NCBI GenBank assembly: GCA_024803745.1
Contig: JANJXV010000013.1
Span: 15,807,501-15,871,500, forward strand
Direction: 5' to 3'
Length of the DNA: 64,000 bases
Source: Megascapheus bottae
Taxonomy: Eukaryota > Chordata > Mammalia > Rodentia > Geomyidae
The notes below the pieces were generated by a model. That model saw only the letters and a list, made by a program, of their open reading frames with translations. It searched no databases and was not told the origin of the DNA. A program made the position numbers and the translations under genes. Below are positions 11,840-51,065 of the stretch, in pieces (positions within the stretch are counted from its first letter, which is position 1; every line of letters begins with the position of its first letter).

Positions 11840-12778
11840 ATGGGGCTCTTCAATGTCACTCACCCTGCTTTTTTCCTCCTAACTGGTATCCCCGGCCTGG
11901 AGAGCCTTCATTCGTGGCTGGCAGGGCCCCTCTGTGCCATGTACGCCGTGGCCCTTGGGGGAAACGCAGTGATCCTGCAGGCCGTGCGAAGACAGCCCAG
12001 CCTCCACGCGCCCATGTACTCCTTCCTGTCCATGCTGTCCTTCAGCGACGTGGCCATGGCCCTGGCGACCCTGCCCACGGTGTTCAGGACCTTCTGCCTC
12101 CATGCTCACAGCATTGCTTTTGACGCCTGCCTGACGCAGATGGTTCTCATTCACGCCTTCTCCATGATGGAGTCGGGGATACTGCTGGCCATGAGCTTCG
12201 ATCGCTACGTGGCCATCTGCCATCCGCTGCGCTACGCCGCTGTGCTCACCGGGGCTGTCATCGCCGGCACAGGTTTGGCTGTGACAGCCCGGAGCTTCCT
12301 CACCCTCTTCCCTCTGCCTTTCCTCCTCTGGAGGCTGCCCCTGTGCAGGTCCAACGTGCTCTCCCACTCCTACTGCCTGCACCCCGACCTGATGAGGCTG
12401 GCCTGTGCCGACGTCACGGTCAACAGCATCTACGGGCTCTTCGTTCTGGTCTCCACCTTCGGCATGGACCTGCTGTTTGTCTTCCTCTCCTACGTGCTCA
12501 TTCTGCGTTCGGTCCTGGCCATTGCATCCCACGAAGCGCGCCTCAAAGCTCTCAACACGTGCGTGTCGCATATCTTGGCTGTGCTGGCATTTTACGTGCC
12601 CATGATTGGCGTGTCCACGGTGCACCGCTTTGGGAAGCAGGCCCCCCGCTACGTGCACGTCCTCCTGTCCAACGTCTACCTCTTCGTGCCCCCAGTGCTC
12701 AACCCTCTCATCTACAGCGCCAAGACCAAGGAGATCCGCCGAGCCGTCCTCGGCATGTTTCCACGCATCAGAATGTGA
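11840..12778 (+). CDS. OR51I2: Olfactory receptor OR51I2, intact
   Basis: This is a 312-codon class I odorant receptor. The frame stays open upstream to 11663, but the ATG at 11840 starts MGLFNVTHPAFFLLTGIPG, the conserved N-terminus with glycosylation site N5-V-T, and gives the 312-residue length I recall for human OR51I2. Visible motifs are GN in helix 1, MSFDRYVAICHPLRY at helix 3, the loop-2 cysteines in LPLC and HSYCLHPD, KALNTCVSH in helix 6 and PPVLNPLIYS in helix 7. A candidate splice acceptor (AG at 11796-11797) sits 42 bp before the ATG. A strong donor (CAG/GTGAGT) at 9190/9191 could end its non-coding first exon. The coding sequence is strikingly richer in G+C, especially at third codon positions, than the other receptors here. 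A 259-codon antisense frame is a by-product of that composition. Confidence 0.95.
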   Translation: MGLFNVTHPAFFLLTGIPGLESLHSWLAGPLCAMYAVALGGNAVILQAVRRQPSLHAPMYSFLSMLSFSDVAMALATLPTVFRTFCLHAHSIAFDACLTQMVLIHAFSMMESGILLAMSFDRYVAICHPLRYAAVLTGAVIAGTGLAVTARSFLTLFPLPFLLWRLPLCRSNVLSHSYCLHPDLMRLACADVTVNSIYGLFVLVSTFGMDLLFVFLSYVLILRSVLAIASHEARLKALNTCVSHILAVLAFYVPMIGVSTVHRFGKQAPRYVHVLLSNVYLFVPPVLNPLIYSAKTKEIRRAVLGMFPRIRM

Positions 12779-15645: not shown

Positions 15646-17337
15646 TTTCACATCAATTTCTAACACCTGAACACTTGATATTTCACTACAATTTGTATAT
15701 GCCTCCACTGCTCTTCTAGTGTAGAGTGTAACTCACAGCTAAGATTTCCATAAACCTCTATAGCCTTGTACCACTTACCAGGTTGATGTGGGCAAGCATA
15801 AGAAAAAACAAGTTTCAATTAAGAGACACACAAAAAGCAGAGGTGAAAAGCACCCAGCTCCTATCTTACATCATTTATAAAAATCCATGTTGCTCAGGAA
15901 ATTCTCCTTGCCTTTATTCCTTATCAGAAAGGATTCTGATCATTATTTAACCACACTTCTAAGAAAAAAGTTGAGTCTATTTTGAGTGGGCTAGTAATAA
16001 CTCTTCAGTATAGCATATTTCTTTTCAGGTTTGTTTTTTCAGTATTTGCTTGTAAGAAAAAACCCAGCTCATTCTTTTATTTATTCACCCAAAAATGCTT
16101 ACTGAGGTCATTTGTAATATGAAAATATTTTGGTCAGGACTTGTGACTATCTGACTTATTCTTTATGGTTTATGAGAAACTACCCAAAGACCTATGGCAA
16201 AGATATGTCATATCAATAGCAAACAGGAATTGTTATTGCCTACATGCTTCTGTATTCTTTCCCTAGGTTCTTTCTTTTGTTAAAATATATTAATTTTATA
16301 ATAGCAGTATGTATATTTCCAAATACAGTCTGGACTGGATTGCTTGTCCAAACTTTAGTAATGACGGTTCTAAATTTGTATTTCTTCCTTTCTTTCTTTT
16401 ATTTTATTAACTTTAAGTATTTGTACAGAGTGCTTTCAGTTCAACATGCCAGTTAGTGAGTAAACACATCTCAATAAATGTCATCACTTTCATTCTACTG
16501 CTTTTTCGCCTTAATTCCACAGTGGAGCTATTACATGTAACACTTGTCTATTCTGAATGGCTATAATGCATCTTAGGTGTTCTTGTGTGATAAGTGAATG
16601 AGCCTGAGGACCACAAGACTATGTATGGATATAAGGCAAAGGCAAGCTGGTAGATAAAGTTGCCTGGGGTTGCAATTAGCATTTTATTTTCTTTTCTTCC
16701 CTGTTCCCCACTCCTTTCCATCATGGGGCTTTAACTCAGGATCTAATTTCTATTCCTGAGTTCTTTTACTCAACAATATAGACTAGGAAAGTAAAATAAG
16801 TCTAAGACATAAATAAGGATATATCTGTTAAACAGACATAAAGCATTACTTAACTGCGTTACAGACACAAGATCAGAAGCAACTCATGCATCAATTACTC
16901 AATGAAGAACTGAGATAAATAATCAGCCCCAACAGGAAATATAGCTCAAAATTTAAATTACAAAGATCAGTAAGAAATGTTCACAAAAATTCATTCAAAA
17001 CCTTTATGTCAGTAAGGGAAAAAATTTATTGGAAATGAGTCTGATGTAAATCAAACAACTTGGCTATGATTTTAACAATATAGATTCATTTACAAAATAA
17101 TTGATTAATTTAAACTGCTAGCATTTGGTCCTTACAAAAATAGTATCAACAGATTTAAAATGTTTAATTTACAGCCTCTAGCGGGGCCACATCCTGTAAT
17201 AAATTTCAGACACCCAAAGCACATCCATGTAGAGAAGGAGAGCTAAAGTCTCCATCACACCAGCCAGGAACACCCAAACACCAACAATAACAAAACTGAA
17301 AAGGGAACCTGGTATTTCAGAAAACGTTCTTTCCTGA

Positions 17338-18282
17338 TCAGAACTTAGGTCTCGTTAGCATCTTGTGCATCTTCCTACGGATCTCCTTTGTCTTGATGGA
17401 ATAGATAATTGGGTTGAGCATGGGAGGCACAAAGAGATAGACCAGGGATGTGAACTGGTGCACATACTCGGGGGCCTGCTTTGCAAATCGGTGCACCATG
17501 GACACGCTGAGCATGGGCACGTAGAAGATGAGCACAGCGCAGAGGTGAGACACGCAGGTGTTGAGAGTCTTCAGCCTCTCCCCCCGGGAGGCGATGGCCA
17601 GCACAGAGCGCAGAATGAGCACATAGGAGAGGAGGATGAGCACTGAATCCACCCCAAAGGCTGAGATGACAATGAACAGACCGTACATGCTGTTGATGGT
17701 GGTGACACCGCAGGGCAGGCGGATCAGGTCTGGGTGCAGGCAGTAGGAATGAGCCAGCACGTTGTCCCCACAGAAGGGCAGCCTCTTCAGGAGAAAGGAC
17801 AGTGGGAAGACCATGCAGAAACTGCGGACAATGATTGATATGCCCATGTGGACCACACGGGCATCCGTGAGCACTGAGGAATAGCGCAGGGGTCTGCAGA
17901 TGGCCACATACCGGTCAAAACTCATAGCCAACAAGATCCCGGACTCCATCCAAGAGAAAAAGTGAATGAAAAACATCTGGGCAAAGCAAGCATCAAAAGC
18001 AATCTCTGTGGCATGAAAACACACAGAAGCCAGCACGGTGGGCAGTGTGGAAAGAGACACCCCCAGGTCATTGACAGATAGAAGAGACAGGAAATAGTAC
18101 ATTGGCTGGTGCAAGCTCTGCTCCTCCTTTATGATGAAGAGAATGAGAGTGTTGCCCAAGATAGAGATGGCATAAAGCAACAGGAGGAGGGCAGCCAGCC
18201 AGTGCTCCAGGTTTTCCATCTCTGGAAAGGCTGTCAATGTGAAGCCGGTGGTACTGGAGACATTCCTCCTAAAGCTCTTCAT
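17338..18282 (-). CDS. OR51-family olfactory receptor 'A'
   Basis: This intact class I odorant receptor has 314 codons from the ATG at 18282. The frame is open to an earlier ATG at 18408, but starting at MKSFRRNVSS gives exactly the length of its paralogues B and C and puts the N-glycosylation site N7-V-S in the usual place. The earlier ATG would add 42 residues without OR similarity. Motifs include LGN in helix 1, LHQPMYYFLSLLSVNDLG at helix 2, MSFDRYVAICRPLRY at helix 3, loop-2 cysteines, KTLNTCVSHLCAV in helix 6 and PPMLNPIIYS in helix 7. The N-terminal pre-helix reads AFPEME instead of the usual GxPGLE. Codons from about 164 to the stop are nearly identical to receptor C. A candidate acceptor (boundary 18290) lies just before the ATG, and a TTTATT (17025-17030) is a possible minus-strand poly(A) signal. 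I cannot name the one-to-one orthologue. Confidence 0.9.
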   Translation of the reverse strand: MKSFRRNVSSTTGFTLTAFPEMENLEHWLAALLLLLYAISILGNTLILFIIKEEQSLHQPMYYFLSLLSVNDLGVSLSTLPTVLASVCFHATEIAFDACFAQMFFIHFFSWMESGILLAMSFDRYVAICRPLRYSSVLTDARVVHMGISIIVRSFCMVFPLSFLLKRLPFCGDNVLAHSYCLHPDLIRLPCGVTTINSMYGLFIVISAFGVDSVLILLSYVLILRSVLAIASRGERLKTLNTCVSHLCAVLIFYVPMLSVSMVHRFAKQAPEYVHQFTSLVYLFVPPMLNPIIYSIKTKEIRRKMHKMLTRPKF

Positions 18283-27035: not shown

Positions 27036-27980
27036 TCAACACTTTTTCCCCAGCAGTATTTTACACAGCCTTCGACGAATCTCTTTGGTTTTGATGGAAT
27101 AAATGACAGGGTTGAGCATTGGAGGGACAAACAGATAAACAAGGGACAAGAGTGTGTGCACATATTGTGGGGCGTGCCTTCCGTAGCGAGCAGCCATGGA
27201 CACACCGACCATGGGCACGTAGAAAATGAGCACAGCACACAGGTGTGACACACACGTGTTGAGGGCCTTTAACCTCTCTTCCCTGGAGGCGATGGCAAGG
27301 ACGGAATGCAGTATGAACACGTAAGAAAGGAGAATGAGGGCAGAATCTAGACCAAACGTAGAGACAACGATGAAAAGACCAAAGATATTATTAATAGTGA
27401 TGTCCCCACAGGGCAGGCGGATGAGGTCTGGGTGCAGGCAGTAGGAGTGGGTCAGCACGTTGGCCTTGCAGAAGGGCAGCCTCTTCAGGAGGAAAGGTAG
27501 AGGGAAGACCATGCAGAAGCTGCGGATCAAAACAGCCACGCACATCTGCAGCACACGGGCATCGGTGAGAACTGTGGCATAGCGCAGTGGATTACAGATG
27601 GCTACATAGCGGTCAAAGCTCATGACCAGCAGGATCCCAGACTCCATGAAGGAGAAGAGATGAATAAAGAACATTTGGGCCATGCAAGAATTAAAACTGA
27701 TCTGTTTTAAATGGAAGCAGAACGTGGGTAGCACAGTGGGCAGGGTGGACAGAGACACACCTAGGTCATTAATTGAGAGCAGGGACAGGAAGTAGTACAT
27801 GGGCTGGTGCAAGCTCTGCTCCTCCTTGATAATAAAGAGAATCAGAGCATTGCCCAAAATGGCGACCACATACAGGGCTCCCAGAAGCAAGAACATCCAG
27901 TGCTGGGAGGTCTCCAATCCCGGGAGTCCTGACAGGGTGAAAGGAGGCAGTCCTGAGCTATTGTGAGGTTCACCTGCCAT
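27036..27980 (-). CDS. OR51-family olfactory receptor 'B'
   Basis: This is an intact 314-codon class I odorant receptor. Landmarks are N7-S-S glycosylation, SGLPGLETSQHW before helix 1, N44 in helix 1, C99, the D123-R124-Y125 motif, loop-2 cysteines C171, C181 and C191, KALNTCVSHLCAV near 238-250, and N290-P291-xx-Y294 in helix 7. It is closely related to receptor C over the first half of the protein and clearly different in the second. A splice acceptor fits 35 bp before the ATG (minus strand CTCTTTACAG, exon boundary 28015), at the same place and with the same sequence as in receptor C. The homologous upstream block at 30000-30810 probably holds its promoter and first exon. It belongs to the OR51 family, but I cannot assign a symbol. 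Confidence 0.93.
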   Translation of the reverse strand: MAGEPHNSSGLPPFTLSGLPGLETSQHWMFLLLGALYVVAILGNALILFIIKEEQSLHQPMYYFLSLLSINDLGVSLSTLPTVLPTFCFHLKQISFNSCMAQMFFIHLFSFMESGILLVMSFDRYVAICNPLRYATVLTDARVLQMCVAVLIRSFCMVFPLPFLLKRLPFCKANVLTHSYCLHPDLIRLPCGDITINNIFGLFIVVSTFGLDSALILLSYVFILHSVLAIASREERLKALNTCVSHLCAVLIFYVPMVGVSMAARYGRHAPQYVHTLLSLVYLFVPPMLNPVIYSIKTKEIRRRLCKILLGKKC

Positions 27981-28689
27981 TCTGGCACTCTGGCTCAGAT
28001 ACTCCAGCCACAGCCCTGTAAAGAGGATAAATACAGTGTTGAGTATGCCCTTGCCCTGATTTAATTTTAAGCCTCTTCTAAACTGTCAACTCCCTACTCT
28101 GAAGCAGAAATCAGCTATCATTCATCCTTGCTTCTCTTTGTTGCAAGGATTCTTGTCTTTTGAAATCTTTAAGTAGTTAAAAGGTGTTTCCATTTAAGAA
28201 CTCAGGCTTTGAGTATGGTGTATCTTGATCAGTACAAACCCTTTAATCATTCTCTCCCATCTCTACCAACCTCAGCCATCCTCTCTAGTTACCTAGCTCC
28301 AATTTATATATGTATGTAGAATATTATGACTTCATTCAACCAACTGATCTCTTTCTATTTGTCTCCCCCTTCTTGACCTCCTCCCTTCAGGCCACTCATG
28401 TTTCACGTTGAGTTATATGTTTGAAGAACTTACACCATGCAAGGATTCTCCAAATCCCAATTTCTCAATGTATCCAACTGGTTAGTTTGGCCTCTTGCTT
28501 TCTTTTTTAATCTTATCTGTCACTTCTTCTGTGTCCAAGGCCATGCATTCTTTTACCCAATTTATGATTATTACTTTAATCCCTAGCCTACTTGTGAATT
28601 AAGTGAAATTTGTTGGTGACAAGGAGCTGAATAATTCCAAAGTATGAATCAGCCAAAATCTTGAAAGTATATTGACTATAAGAAGAAAT

Positions 28690-28922
28690 AACTAGTCGGG
28701 TGCCAGTGGTTCATGCCTGTAATCCTAGCTATTCAGGAGGCTGAAATCTGAAGATCATGGTTCAAAACCAGCCCAGGAATGAAAGTCCCTGAGACTCTTA
28801 TTTCTAATTAATCACTAGAAAATCAGAAGTGTTGCTGTAGCTGAAATGGTAGAGCCCTAACCTTGAGCAGAAGAGCTCAGGGACAGTTCCCAGGCCTAGA
28901 ATTCAAGCCCCATCCCATGACA
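28690..28922 (+). mobile_element. 7SL/ID-dimer SINE whose tail became the GAA tract
   Basis: A full copy (GTGCCAGTGGTTCATGCCTG to TTCAAGCCCCATCCCATGAC) runs directly into the (GAA)n tract at 28923, where its A-rich tail should be. Confidence 0.85.
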
Positions 28923-29081
28923 GAAGAAGAAGAAGAAGAAGAAGAAGAAGAAGAAGAAGAAGAAGAAGAAGAAGAAGAAGAAGAAGAAGAAGAAGAAGAA
29001 GAAGAAGAAGAAGAAGAAGAAGAAGAAAAAGAAGAAGAAGAAGAAGAAGAAGAAGAAGAAGAAGAAGAAGAAGAAGAAGAA

Positions 29082-29113
<32 letters not shown>

Positions 29114-29243
29114 AGAGGAAGAAGAAGAAGAGGAGGAGGAGGAGGAGGAAGAGGAGGAGGAGGAGGAGGAGGAGGAAGAAGAAGAAGAAGAAGAAGAAGA
29201 AGAAGAAGAAGAAGAAGAAGAAGAAGAAGAAGAAGAAGAAGGG
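28921..29243. repeat. 320-bp (GAA)n tract
   Basis: About 105 triplets, mostly GAA, with one AAA near 29030 and a GAG-rich interior at 29103-29175. It is purine-only for its full length and begins at the 3' end of a SINE. The long frames through it encode only Glu or Ser runs. Confidence 0.97.
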
Positions 29244-33645: not shown

Positions 33646-34784
33646 ACCTTAGAGATGTTTAAAATGTCATCAGCATATCTGCAAATGGATTTCATGATGA
33701 TATATCAATTTATGCATGTAATGTGCTTCAATTTAGCTCAACTCTTTTACTCATTCATATTCACTTTCTTCTACTCCCCACACTTTTACAATTTTTATTG
33801 GATCTTACTATTCTATTTTTATAGGCATAATGTATTTCAATCATATTGACTGACCAGCACCTGTCCTTTCCTCCACACTCTTCCCCCTGGTCACTTCCTC
33901 AATAACACACCTTTCACCTTCATACCGTATTAATATTAGTATTAGTATTATTAATGATTACATATGGATTTCTCAGATAATTTAAAACATGATATATGAG
34001 CTTGATTTATCTCACTTGAGAAGTTAATGTTTAGAAAACTTGAGGTCTTCTCTCTGGTCATGCCTGCTGATTGGCAGCAGGTAATGTTGCAGTTTTTCCA
34101 TATAGAAACTTCTAGAAAACATATAGCTCATGTTATGTAATTCATAATATGCTGTTAATATTAAATAAGTAGTCAGATACAAATACAATTCCATATTTTA
34201 GGAAAAAGGAGTTCTAGTATTTCAAAGGTATTAATTTGGTCAAACAACTACGGTATGTGTTTAGATCTCAAAGTTTGAAGATATTTCACAATTGTAATTC
34301 CTTTAATAATTTAGAGTGATAGCTATGATGTCAAGTAACATAATCTCCAACTATAAAATGGTATAGTAGGTTATACACTTGTAATTATTTTTATTATCCT
34401 TTGCTAGTTGTACGAAGAAGTTGTCTTTAATAAAGAGTTTATGGCACAATATATCTTGACCAGTATCGTCCTTTGAGACATAGTTGGAAGTATATGTGTG
34501 ATAGATAGAGGCTAAGTTCATTTTCATTGATGGCTGTGTTTGGGGTACATGTTGTAGCAACCTGTACAATGAATAATTACAACTTATAGTAGTGGATGAT
34601 TTGAGTCATACCTTGTAGCCAAGCTATAACATATCAAACATCTAGACCCAATAATGCATCCACACTTATCCACTTATAAGAAAAGTGCGGAGCTCCAAGA
34701 GAACACTTTGGAATTCCCAAATACCATCTATAATAAAACCCAGAGAGGTATCTGGCATGCCACAGAAAATTGATTGCTTCCTGT

Positions 34785-35729
34785 TCAGAACTTAGGTCTC
34801 CTTAGCATCTTGTGCATCTTCCTGCGGATCTCCTTTGTCTTGATGGAATAGATAATTGGGTTGAGCATGGGAGGCACAAAGAGATAGACCAGGGACGTGA
34901 ACTGGTGCACATACTCGGGGGCCTGCTTTGCAAATCGGTGCACCATGGACACGCTGAGCATGGGCACGTAGAAGATGAGCACAGCGCAGAGGTGAGACAC
35001 GCAGGTGTTGAGAGTCTTCAGCCTCTCCCCCCGGGAGGCGATGGCCAGCACAGAGCGCAGAATGAGCACATAGGAGAGGAGGATGAACACTGAATCCACC
35101 CCGAAGGCTGAGATGACAATGAACAGACCGTACATGCTGTTGATGGTGGTGTCGCCGCAGGGCAGGCGGATCAGGTCTGGGTGCAGGCAGTAGGAATGAG
35201 CCAGCACGTTGTCCCCACAGAAGGGCAGCCTCTTCAGGAGGAAAGGCATTGGGAACACCAGGCAGAAACTTCGGATGATAACCGATAAGCCCATTTGAAG
35301 CACGCGGGCCTCTGTAAGTATTGTGGCATAGCGCAGTGGATTACAGATAGCCACGTAGCGGTCAAAGCTCATGAACAGCAAGATCCCAGACTCCATGAAG
35401 GAGAAGAAGTGGATAAAAAACATTTGGGCCATGCAAAAATTAAAACTGATCTGTTTTAAATGGAAGCAACAGATGGCAAGTACTGTGGGCAGGGTGGACA
35501 GAGACACACCTACATCATTAACTGAGAGAAAGGACAGAAAGTAGTACATGGGCTGGTGCAAGCTCTGCTCCTCCTTGATAATAAAGAGAATCAGGGCATT
35601 TCCCACTATAGAAATGAAGTAAAGGGTTCCCAGAAGCAAGAACATCCAGTGCTGGGAGGTCTCCAATCCTGGGAGTCCTGACAGGGTGAAAGGAGGCAGT
35701 CCTGAACTGTTGGAGAATTCGCCTTCCAT
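34785..35729 (-). CDS. OR51-family olfactory receptor 'C', mosaic of B-like and A-like halves
   Basis: This intact 314-codon class I odorant receptor has N7-S-S glycosylation, LETSQHWMFLLLG before helix 1, MSFDRYVAICNPLRY at helix 3, loop-2 cysteines, KTLNTCVSHLCAV and PPMLNPIIYS. Codons 1 to about 163 follow receptor B closely (for example HLKQISFN and VLQM). From about codon 164 (LLKRLPFC) to the stop, the protein is almost identical to receptor A, with about seven nucleotide differences in 456 bp by hand count. The switch falls in a stretch shared by all three genes (35221-35240). The upstream region, including the acceptor (TTCTTTACAG, boundary 35764) and promoter block at 37330-38120, is B-like. 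This pattern indicates gene conversion of the 3' half from A. A TTTATT at 34390-34395 could be its poly(A) signal. Confidence 0.93.
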   Translation of the reverse strand: MEGEFSNSSGLPPFTLSGLPGLETSQHWMFLLLGTLYFISIVGNALILFIIKEEQSLHQPMYYFLSFLSVNDVGVSLSTLPTVLAICCFHLKQISFNFCMAQMFFIHFFSFMESGILLFMSFDRYVAICNPLRYATILTEARVLQMGLSVIIRSFCLVFPMPFLLKRLPFCGDNVLAHSYCLHPDLIRLPCGDTTINSMYGLFIVISAFGVDSVFILLSYVLILRSVLAIASRGERLKTLNTCVSHLCAVLIFYVPMLSVSMVHRFAKQAPEYVHQFTSLVYLFVPPMLNPIIYSIKTKEIRRKMHKMLRRPKF

Positions 35730-36332
35730 TTTGGGATGCCTGCTCAGGTTTTCCAGCCAGTCCCCTGTAAAGAAGACAATAGACAGTGTTGAATATGCTC
35801 TGGCCCCAATATAAGTTTACATCTTTCTTATGTAGTTTACTCCTTGCTCTTCAACACTGATCTCTTTGGGGTGACTACATCCTTGACCTTGCCTCTCATT
35901 ATGACAAAGATTTCCAAAACCTCTTAGTTGTTCCTATGTGTTCAGTTGGTAGTACTTGTATTTCCCTCCTTTTCACCTGTCTGTCACTTTTTTTTTACTT
36001 TTATTGCCACAACTATTTTCTCTTTCAAGCTTTTGATTATTCTTGGCACTCCTGGTAAACACAGTGAAATTTCTATTAGTGGCAAGAGTCTAAATCATGC
36101 CAAGTATCAAACAGTCATGATCCTGAGAGTATACATGCAACAAGAACAAATATATCTACTCCTTTGCTTTTTCTATTTCTCTGTTGTGAATCAAAACACC
36201 TCTCATATCAACAGGATTTTATTTCATCTCATGGGCTTCATAAATGTTTCTTCTTGTAACTGAGATTGAAATAAATATCTCTAAGAAGTCTTTTTTAATC
36301 CAGCCTGTCTAAGTCTGCTTAAAAGAAATATT

Positions 36333-45415: not shown

Positions 45416-46214
45416 GAGTCAAAATTCTTCCTGCAAATTTAGCAGGTAATTATTTTAGCTTGATAAAGGTAAATCAGACTGTGAAGAGTTTTTTTTTTTA
45501 ACACGGATGCTGATCATGTACAGGATAATCTCGCCTGTGCACCTCCCCACCATGGAGTCAGAGGCTTGTTTTCAAATTTCTCAATACTGTAGAAGCTAAG
45601 TGTTCTCTGATATAATTGTGCCGTTAAAAACAAATGCCAGAACTTATATCTGGGTAACTTCTAGTTCCTAGGTATAATCTGTATGTATTCAGAGTTGGCT
45701 ATACATTCAAGCACTGTCTAGTTTCAGTAACAATCTTTTATAAAAGGGACTGAGAGATTTATAAACCATTTTCTCATTGTCTTTTTCTTTTATTAAAGTG
45801 GAAACGAATTATGTATTCGATCTATGCATATTTTATATAGCATAGAATAAAACTTCTAATATTTCAAAAAGGAAAGAGAGAAAGGAAGAACGAAGGAAGG
45901 AAGAAAGAAGGAGAAGGGCAATATTAGAAAGATAAATATTAGCTTGATTTTTAATATACAGATAATTATATGCTTTAGACATAGACTGAAAGCCTCACTG
46001 CCCAATTGTACAGAAAGTATAAAGTGGGGGAAACATGGACTGTAGGTGATAGTTGAACCAGATGTTTGAAAGAGTTACTGACGCTGAAACAAAAACCTTT
46101 CTATTCACCATTGTATAATATTGTTTAACAGTGAGGTGAATGCAGTCATCCGACTGGGTAGATGGTGCTCCTTGGATAGACATCCTTGGATAGACACCTG
46201 ATTCGCCAAGAAGG

Positions 46215-47171
46215 ATGTCAGACTTGAACAGCAGTGACAACGGCCTCCCCACCACAGTCTTCCTGACAGGGATCCCAGGCCTGGAGTCTGCCCACTTCTG
46301 GATTGCCATCCCATTCTGTGCCATGTATATCGTAGCACTTGTGGGCAACGCTGCCCTCGTGCTGGTCATCAGAACTGCCAGCACTCTCCACACCCCCATG
46401 TACCTCTTCCTTTGCCTCCTCTCACTCGCTGACTTGGCTCTCAGCTCCACCACTGTGCCCAAGACACTGGCAATCCTGTGGTTCCATGCCAGTGAGATTT
46501 CCTTCGGGGGGTGTCTGGCCCAGATGTTTTGTGTGCATGCAATCTATGCTCTAGAGTCCTCGATTCTTCTGGCCATGGCCTTTGATCGCTATGTGGCTAT
46601 CTGCAACCCGCTGAGATACACGACCATTCTCAACCACACTGTCATAGGCCAGATTGTCTCCGTGGGGCTATTCCGTAGTATAGCTGTTGTCTCTCCCCTC
46701 ATCTTTTTGCTGAGGCGACTGCCCTACTGTGGCCACCGTGTCATGGCTCACACATACTGTGAGCATATGGGCATTGCCCGGCTGGCCTGTGCCAATCTCA
46801 CTGTCAATATTATCTATGGGCTGACCATGGCTCTGCTGGTCGTGGGTGTGGACTCCATCCTCATTGCCATTTCCTATGGCTTTATCCTTCGTGCCATCTT
46901 CAGTCTCCCATCCCATGATGCCCGACACAAGGCCTTAAGTACATGTGGCTCTCACCTAGGTGTCATCCTTGTCTTCTATTTCCCTGCCTTCTTCTCCTTC
47001 CTCACCCACCGCTTTGGCCACCAGCGAGTCCCCAAGCATGTGCACATCTTCCTGGCTAACCTCTATGTGCTGGTGCCTCCTGTACTCAACCCTGTCATCT
47101 ATGGGGTGAGAACCAAAGAGATTCGGGGTCGACTTCTGAGGCTGCTTCGTTTAGGAAAGACTTTAAGATGA
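46215..47171 (+). CDS. OR52D1: OR52D1-like olfactory receptor, copy 1
   Basis: This is an intact 318-codon class I odorant receptor, the same length I recall for human OR52D1. It begins MSDLNSSDNGLPTTVFLTGIPGLE with glycosylation at N5-S-S. It has LVGNAALVLVI in helix 1, LHTPMYLFLCLLSLADLALSS at helix 2, MAFDRYVAICNPLRY at helix 3, loop-2 cysteines in LPYC and HTYCEHMGIARLAC, KALSTCGSHLGV in helix 6 and PPVLNPVIYG in helix 7. By hand comparison it is about 96% identical in nucleotides (94% in protein) to the copy at 50109-51065. A candidate acceptor is the AG at 46130-46131, and a candidate first-exon donor is at 41815/41816. AATAAA at 47616-47621 may be its poly(A) signal. Both copies are equally plausible OR52D1 orthologues. 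Confidence 0.93.
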   Translation: MSDLNSSDNGLPTTVFLTGIPGLESAHFWIAIPFCAMYIVALVGNAALVLVIRTASTLHTPMYLFLCLLSLADLALSSTTVPKTLAILWFHASEISFGGCLAQMFCVHAIYALESSILLAMAFDRYVAICNPLRYTTILNHTVIGQIVSVGLFRSIAVVSPLIFLLRRLPYCGHRVMAHTYCEHMGIARLACANLTVNIIYGLTMALLVVGVDSILIAISYGFILRAIFSLPSHDARHKALSTCGSHLGVILVFYFPAFFSFLTHRFGHQRVPKHVHIFLANLYVLVPPVLNPVIYGVRTKEIRGRLLRLLRLGKTLR

Positions 47172-49215: not shown

Positions 49216-50108
49216 GTAAGTTCTTAAAATCGTGTTCCCTATGGTCTGAGTTCAAAAAGTCAGAGTTCGGTTATGTATTAAATTGGAGGTTGACAGCTGA
49301 ACCTTAAAAAGCCATCATTGTGACTAACAGGCAAGAGGAGAGAGTAAGACAAGTTTGGGAGAGTGCAGCCAGTGTGAAATGGCAGTAGCCAATACTCTTT
49401 TGCCACTGTTCCCAAAGTGAACATTTAAAAATTAAACGTGCTCTGACACCAATCATTCTGCTGTTTCCAGCTAAATAGATGCTGTCAGCATAGCAGGTAT
49501 CTGGTGTTATCTGAAAATCTCCAAGCAAATAGGAAGGGGCTTCCTAGCTCTGTTTATCTCCTTGGAGTTCCAGTAATGTTGTATGTAGCATTAGAAACAG
49601 ATACTAAATAAAAATGGTTGGTTTGGAAGAGATAGAAGTTCAGATATTGGGATGAGATGAAACACTGAAACCTGAATCTGAGCATATGAGACCCAGTTTT
49701 AGGTCTGCCAGTAACAAGCCTGAGGAGTTGCAATGGCATAAAGACATGGAGTCCACAGAGAAGGATTGCCTAAAGTATAGAAAAAATAGTTAAAGATCTC
49801 TGTAGAAAGGGACAAGAAGAATGCCTACCCTTAAAGAGAAAGACTAAATAATCAAGCAGGGGGAACCAAACAAAACAGAGTCCAAATCACAGGGGTCCAT
49901 TCACATTGTTGTTGAATGATGAAAGAAATGGAAGATTCGTTTGATTAGATACAATAAAACTCTTCCCAGGTGCTTGAACAAGGTGCAGATATTTGTGTCC
50001 ATCTACAAAAATTATTTCCTGGAATGTTATTCTGATAAATCAGTCAGATGCCTAATGTCACAGGCAAGCATGCCCTCACCTGCTAGAGACCTTCATCTGT
50101 CAAGACAG

Positions 50109-51065
50109 ATGTCAGCCGCTAACAGCAGTGACAACGGCCTCCCAGTCACAGTCTTCCTGACAGGGATCCCAGGCCTGGAGTCTGCCCACTTCTGGATTGC
50201 CATCCCATTCTGTGCCATGTATATCGTAGCACTTGTGGGCAACGCTGCCCTCGTGCTGGTCATCAGAACTGCCAGCACTCTCCACACCCCCATGTACCTC
50301 TTCCTTTGCCTCCTCTCACTCGCTGACTTGGCTCTCAGCTCCACCACCGTGCCCAAGACACTGGCAATCCTGTGGTTCCATGCCAGTGAGATTTCCTTCG
50401 GGGGGTGTCTGGCCCAGATGTTTTGTGTGCACGCAGTCTATGCTCTAGAGTCCTCGATTCTTCTGGCCATGGCCTTTGATCGCTATGTGGCTATCTGCAA
50501 CCCGCTGAGATACATGACCATTCTCAACCACACTGTCATAGGCCAGATTGTCTCCATGGGGCTATTCCGTAGTATAGCTATTGTCTCTCCCTTCATCTTT
50601 TTGCTGAGGCGACTGCCCTACTGTGGCCACCGTGTCATGGCTCACACATATTGTGAACATATGGGCATTGCCCGGCTGGCCTGTGCCAATCTCACTGTCA
50701 ATATTATCTATGGGCTGACCGTGGCTCTGCTGGCTATGGGCATGGACTCCATCCTCATTGTCATTTCCTATGGCTTTATCCTCCGAGCCATCTTCAGTCT
50801 CCCATCCCATGATGCCCGCCACAAGGCCCTAAGTACTTGTGGCTCTCACCTAGGTGTCATCCTTGTCTTCTATATCCCTGCCTTCTTCTCCTTCCTCACC
50901 CACCGCTTTGGCCACCAGCGAGTCCCCAAGCATGTGCACATCTTCCTGGCTAACCTCTATGTGCTGGTGCCTCCTGTACTCAACCCTGTCATCTATGGGG
51001 CGAGAACCAAAGAGATTCGGGGTCGACTTCTGAGGCTGCTTCATTTCGGGAAGCCTTCCGTGTAA
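50109..51065 (+). CDS. OR52D1: OR52D1-like olfactory receptor, copy 2
   Basis: This intact 318-codon class I odorant receptor starts MSAANSSDNGLPVTVFLTG. The frame remains open to 49941, but that extension has no receptor similarity, and the ATG at 50109 matches the paralogue's start and length. It carries the same set of motifs as copy 1: MAFDRYVAICNPLRY, the HTYCEHMG loop, KALSTCGSHLGV and PPVLNPVIYG. The protein differs at about 20 positions, clustered at the first few codons, in helices 4-5 and at the last seven residues. Homology stops abruptly around both the start and stop codons. A donor (CAG/GTAAGT) at 49215/49216 could end its first exon, and AATAAA at 51662-51667 could end the transcript. 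It could instead be called a second OR52D subfamily member. Confidence 0.93.
   Translation: MSAANSSDNGLPVTVFLTGIPGLESAHFWIAIPFCAMYIVALVGNAALVLVIRTASTLHTPMYLFLCLLSLADLALSSTTVPKTLAILWFHASEISFGGCLAQMFCVHAVYALESSILLAMAFDRYVAICNPLRYMTILNHTVIGQIVSMGLFRSIAIVSPFIFLLRRLPYCGHRVMAHTYCEHMGIARLACANLTVNIIYGLTVALLAMGMDSILIVISYGFILRAIFSLPSHDARHKALSTCGSHLGVILVFYIPAFFSFLTHRFGHQRVPKHVHIFLANLYVLVPPVLNPVIYGARTKEIRGRLLRLLHFGKPSV

What the first reader, a model, noticed from the sequence alone, without database searches (positions are those of the whole stretch)
34785..35240. Half-gene conversion: receptor C has a B-like front and an A-derived back
Positions 34785-35240 differ from 17338-17793 at only about seven bases in 456 (hand count), while the rest of C (codons 1-163) and its upstream acceptor and promoter block follow receptor B. 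The switch falls in a 20-bp stretch (35221-35240) shared by all three genes, at the same codon (about 164) in A and C. The tract covers extracellular loop 2 through the C-terminus and stops near the stop codon. Donor and recipient are 17 kb apart on the same strand. The result is a receptor that combines one paralogue's helices 1-4 with another's helices 5-7.
Basis: seen in the sequence. Interest (0 to 1): 0.82.

Follow-up and report, generated by a model that had tools for sequence, protein, structure and literature searches.

The report
Twice-mixed olfactory receptor gene
A gopher-like rodent's smell-receptor gene joins the front half of one neighbour to the back half of another; the hybrid is old and shared with related rodents, and its back half was later copied again between neighbours, a known kind of gene conversion seen here in good detail.

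Summary
Receptor C (34785-35729, minus) differs from A at exactly 7 of 456 bases from codon 164 to the stop, but follows B in front; 0 of 20000 site shuffles match the pattern. The junction lies in 35217-35241.

A single recent A-to-C conversion is not enough. C-type B-front/A-back hybrids also occur in Thomomys, Perognathus and Dipodomys (heteromyids alone), so the hybrid predates the gopher/heteromyid split and is very unlikely to be an assembly artefact. C's 5' flank matches only B and its 3' flank only A, at about 70% each. B-C front dS is 0.47 and A-C 3' flank distance 0.44, against A-C back dS 0.037. A and C also share gopher-only residues and group together in the back tree (100/98.6). 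So at least two exchanges: an old one that made C, and a young one limited to the coding back half. The young one's direction is open.

New World monkeys have the reciprocal A-front/B-back hybrid. Gene conversion among olfactory receptors is known; this is a new, well-resolved case.

The parts
34785..35729 (-). Receptor C, intact 314-aa class I (OR51) olfactory receptor, B/A hybrid
   Evidence: ORF; 7tm_4 401 bits; end-to-end ungapped match to consOR51 and OR51E2 over residues 8-309 and 13-309
35241..35729 (-). B-type front of C, codons 1-163
   Evidence: 69 of 489 differences from B against 155 from A
35218..35240 (-). 23 bp identical in A, B and C; the junction falls here or at its edges
   Evidence: informative sites 489 and 513
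34785..35240 (-). A-type back of C, codons 164 to stop; young tract shared with A
   Evidence: 7 of 456 differences from A; dS 0.037
34657..34783 (-). 3' flank of C, related to A's 3' flank only
   Evidence: 82/123 aligned bases, score 50.5, 0 of 2000 shuffles; B-C 172 of 2000
35742..35942 (-). 5' flank of C, related to B's 5' flank only
   Evidence: 137/187 aligned bases, score 104.5, 0 of 2000 shuffles; A-C 572 of 2000
17338..18282 (-). Receptor A; its last 456 bases (17338-17793) are the partner of the young exchange
17211..17336 (-). 3' flank of A matching C's 3' flank
27036..27980 (-). Receptor B, closest window relative of C's front
27993..28188 (-). 5' flank of B matching C's 5' flank

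Best explanation
C is an old hybrid olfactory receptor gene whose back half was later homogenised again with A. Step 1 (hybrid state shown, route inferred): before gophers and heteromyids split, a duplicate of B with its 5' flank came to carry the back half and 3' flank of A, by a long gene conversion or by a two-step unequal crossing-over. Step 2 (shared tract shown, process inferred): later, in the gopher lineage, a second exchange between A and C copied at most 456 bp. Its upstream limit is the old junction, where A and C stop being alike, and its downstream limit the end of the coding sequence, beyond which the flanks had drifted to 67%. Interlocus gene conversion by homology-directed repair is the likely process; its direction is not known. 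The product has helices 1-4 of B type and extracellular loop 2 to the C-terminus of A type, behind a B-type 5' flank.
For: Sharp step, 0 of 20000 shuffles. Heteromyid C alone: front held with window A rejected (p-AU 1.7e-8), back held with window B rejected (p-AU 0.001). Four geomyoid C: front with window A rejected (4.7e-7), back with window B rejected (2.9e-7); C front lies on the B side of a 100/100 branch, C back on the A side of a 100/99.8 branch. Flanks: 5' only B, 3' only A. Two age classes: 0.47, 0.33 and 0.44 against 0.037. Shared gopher residues GD at codons 172-173 (KA in heteromyid C), and window A + window C + Thomomys C 100/98.6 in the back. The own assembly has no other close copy in a search that scored 40 of 51 candidates.
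Against: Comparative data are proteins only, so heteromyid gene models could in principle be mis-spliced. The test against a C clade without A in the back is marginal (p-AU 0.042). B's 3' flank might have been rearranged, which would weaken the flank argument. Whether C's front arose inside the B group or at its base is unresolved (88/89; C outside B not rejected, p-AU 0.157); likewise C's back at the base of A cannot be told from a place just outside it when window A is left out (p-AU 0.363).
Confidence: 0.8

Rival explanations
1. One recent conversion from A into a wholly B-like C.
For: 98.5% A-C identity over the back half with a sharp step.
Against: C's 3' flank is A-like, not B-like; heteromyid C proteins are already hybrid.
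Confidence: 0.1
2. One old exchange only; strong constraint on both genes kept the backs alike.
For: The hybrid is old.
Against: A-C synonymous divergence in the back is 0.037 against 0.47 for the B-C front; gopher A and C share residues absent from heteromyid C.
Confidence: 0.05
3. Assembly artefact joining B-like and A-like reads.
For: 456 nearly identical bases are a usual cause of misjoins.
Against: A separate genome, Thomomys bottae, has the same hybrid; C carries L215F and T310R, found in neither A nor Thomomys C.
Confidence: 0.02

Closest known systems
Mosaic olfactory receptors made by gene conversion (Sharon et al. 1999, seen only as cited in the review PMC1995454)
   Same: Paralogues in one tandem cluster exchange part of the coding exon and give mosaic receptors; the review says so in general terms (passages).
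   Different: Here two successive layers, a junction reused as tract border and a reciprocal hybrid in another order of mammals can be told apart. I did not see Sharon et al. itself.
Lepore and anti-Lepore globin hybrids (recalled)
   Same: Front of one tandem gene joined to the back of its neighbour; C is B-front/A-back in an order B then A along transcription, the monkey gene the reverse.
   Different: C stands upstream of intact B and A, so a single unequal crossing-over does not give it; conversion or two steps are needed.
Consensus OR51 and OR51E2 structures (8uxv, 8f76)
   Same: C aligns without gaps over nearly its whole length.
   Different: At the position equivalent to OR51E2 L158 (4.60) geomyoid C has Met where A and B have Leu.

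Membership tests
Interlocus gene conversion | Tract of unusually high identity between paralogues with a sharp border inside homologous sequence | tested here: met
   7 of 456 against 155 of 489; 0 of 20000 shuffles
Interlocus gene conversion | Conflicting trees for the two parts | tested here: met
   front with window A and back with window B both rejected
Interlocus gene conversion | Tract length in the usual range (50 to several hundred bp in the review PMC3924818, passages) | tested here: met
   at most 456 bp for the young tract
Interlocus gene conversion | Non-reciprocal transfer with a known donor | tested here: inconclusive
   no other geomyoid A among the listed hits
Simple unequal crossing-over (Lepore type) | Hybrid in place of both parents, flanks switching once | tested here: not met
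   flanks do switch from B to A across C, but B and A are both still present downstream of C
OR51 class I olfactory receptor | Full-length olfactory receptor domain, closest to OR51 proteins | tested here: met
OR51 class I olfactory receptor | Expression in olfactory neurons and response to odorants | not testable with these tools
   no expression or assay data

The most novel reading that the evidence does not exclude
The A and B receptor lineages act as a two-cassette system in mammals: the conserved stretch at the end of helix 4 and start of extracellular loop 2 is a recurrent junction, used in geomyoid rodents (B/A) and in New World monkeys (A/B), and the back half evolves in concert between A and C while the fronts diverge, so front and back have separate histories and perhaps separate selection.
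Probability: 0.2. Interest if true: 0.6.

Novelty: new member of a known kind. Interest (0 to 1): 0.4.

Why it matters
It gives a natural set of three neighbouring receptors in which a hybrid has the front type of one and nearly the whole back of another; comparing their odour responses would separate what helices 1-4 and what loop 2 to helix 7 contribute. It also suggests how a hybrid junction can set the border of later conversion, so that half a gene evolves in concert. And it warns that whole-gene trees and orthology calls can mislead here: the database names 51I1-like and 51I2-like are mixed among these proteins.

Tried and rejected
Lemmus lemmus proteins P0006, P0008, P0085 and P0100 first looked like further B/A hybrids. 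They are identical in blocks (1-90 and 159-314, 1-176, 1-186) and one has an OR51I1-type back; this looks like mis-spliced gene models, so I do not count them. Rangifer P0070 and Spermophilus P0073 also look mosaic, each from one gene model; not counted.

First AU tests that held all C with all A or B, or the monkeys with all A or B, were badly posed: in each the other hybrid group was left on its wrong side, and this drove the very low p. Repeated without it none of the four is rejected (p 0.157, 0.363, 0.205, 0.251), because the hybrids may then sit at the base of the group. Tests with named partners, free of this fault, do reject (winA+C and winB+C) and are the ones I use.

Junction hot spot: by the same 40 diagnostic sites the geomyoid junction lies between codons 150 and 179 and the monkey one between 150 and 177, but that gap is about 9% of the protein, so the coincidence is weak and I claim no hot spot.

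GC-biased conversion: third-position GC is higher in back than front of C (122/152, 99/163) and A (118/152, 107/163), not in B; of seven genes tried only these two are significant. Suggestive only.

Pocket effect: at 9 positions matched to OR51E2 contacts (F155, L158, S258 and R6.59 seen in passages of PMC10703812; the other five recalled) A, B and C agree at 8, so no new specificity is predicted.

Direction of the young exchange: no sequence at hand decides it.

Full report
Setting. The window holds a class I olfactory receptor cluster: D (1944-2888, minus), an OR51I2-like gene (11840-12778, plus), A, B and C (minus), two near-identical receptor genes at 46215 and 50055 (plus), and two ORFs that look like ubiquilins (names by recall). 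C's best full-length protein match is Thomomys bottae at 98%, then Perognathus at 92% and Dipodomys at 91%, so the source is probably a pocket gopher or close kin. The assembly is 2.84 Gb and the window lies at C13:15807501-15871500.

The identity step is real. A and C differ at 7 of 456 positions from codon 164 through the stop (C 576, 578, 627, 643, 834, 906, 929) and at 155 of 489 in front; B and C differ at 69 of 489 in front and 114 of 456 behind. Of 243 informative sites C matches A:B 23:109 in front and 109:2 behind, and none of 20000 shuffles reaches the observed excursion. The junction lies between C 489 and 513. After the stop A and C differ almost at once.

The hybrid is old. Forty positions separate A-type from B-type receptors. 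Of 165 rows (160 of 170 proteins found, plus five window genes) 91 class as B/B, 44 as A/A and 30 as other: hybrid, divergent, doubtful or outgroup. Thomomys P0002, Perognathus P0004 and Dipodomys P0005 have B-type fronts and A-type backs, like C. In careful trees of 43 rows the four geomyoid C fronts form a clade (99/97), nearest window B (88/89, not strong); C's front lies on the B side of a branch of 100/100 and C's back on the A side of one of 100/99.8. With heteromyid C alone, holding the front with window A is rejected (p-AU 1.7e-8) and so is holding the back with window B (p-AU 0.001). Looser tests that only ask for C beside the A or B group as a whole do not reject (p 0.157 front, 0.363 back), because C may then sit at the group's base; so the exact point of attachment is open.

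The flanks agree. Upstream C matches B (137 of 187 aligned bases, score 104.5, 0 of 2000 shuffles) and not A (572 of 2000 shuffles do as well). Downstream C matches A (82 of 123, score 50.5, 0 of 2000) and not B (172 of 2000 do as well). A recent coding-only conversion into a B duplicate would have left a B-like 3' flank. Divergences fall in two classes: B-C front dS 0.47, B-C 5' flank 0.33 and A-C 3' flank 0.44 on one side, A-C back dS 0.037 on the other. A further B-C block about 1.8-2.8 kb upstream (1041 bp, 64%) fits a B-type duplication, but D shares part of it, so it is weak evidence.

The back was exchanged again. Window A, window C and Thomomys C have GD at codons 172-173 where heteromyid C has KA, and they form a clade of 100/98.6 within the geomyoid group (100/98.5). 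One clade of all C without A is disfavoured, marginally (p-AU 0.042). One old event alone would leave A and C near 0.4; one young event alone would leave heteromyid C with B-type backs. So at least two exchanges are needed. The old junction explains the border of the young tract: upstream of it A and C had no recent kinship (front dS 1.9, near saturation), and past the stop they had drifted apart.

A parallel. Aotus, Saimiri, Callithrix and Sapajus (P0139-P0142) have the reverse make-up, A-type front and B-type back. Their front groups with a normal Sapajus A gene (100/98.2), and holding it with three primate B proteins is rejected (p-AU 4.1e-5); holding their back with that Sapajus A is rejected (p-AU 7.2e-5). 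Groups were named after first trees, so these are not blind tests.

What the protein would do. C is an intact receptor. By alignment to OR51E2 and consOR51 and recalled topology the junction falls at the outer end of helix 4, before extracellular loop 2. In the related OR52cs the odorant pocket is formed by helices 3, 4, 5 and 6, and the OR51E2 site lies similarly (PMC10703812, passages), so C's pocket would draw on both parents. Yet A, B and C agree at eight of nine pocket-equivalent positions; only 4.60 differs, Met in C. A change of specificity is possible but not predicted.

Known or new. A 2007 review says that gene conversion and recombination generate mosaic receptors (PMC1995454, passages); papers on dog receptors and on cluster evolution mention conversion (PMC2635374, PMC1794568, passages). 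The search for pocket gopher with olfactory receptor gave one unrelated paper. Searches for gene conversion with olfactory receptor and chimeric (25 of 32 listed), for OR51 with gene conversion (10 listed), to 2012 without chimeric (30 of 66 listed), for mosaic receptors (15 of 25) and for partial conversion (10 of 29) listed no title or opening abstract describing this case. The library lacks most subscription journals. The kind is known; this member I did not find described.

Limits. Comparative data are proteins only, so single mis-spliced models cannot be excluded; agreement across three genera and the single open frame in the window's DNA argue against it. Direction and date of the young exchange, and any effect on smell, remain open.

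Noticed in passing
46207-47163 and 50101-51057 (+): Two receptor genes (OR52D1-like by recall) share 921 of 957 bases, yet no similarity was found in 2 kb of either flank: perhaps another, whole-coding-region conversion.
   Followed up: partly
protein records P0006, P0008, P0085, P0100 (Lemmus lemmus): Four olfactory receptor models share identical blocks with different backs; they look like mis-spliced models that could pass for hybrids.
   Followed up: partly
17338-17793 and 34785-35240: Third-position GC is raised in the back of A and C but not of B, as GC-biased conversion would give.
   Followed up: partly
1594-1869 and 28922-29133: Many overlapping inverted matches between two stretches, probably simple repeats.
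   Followed up: no
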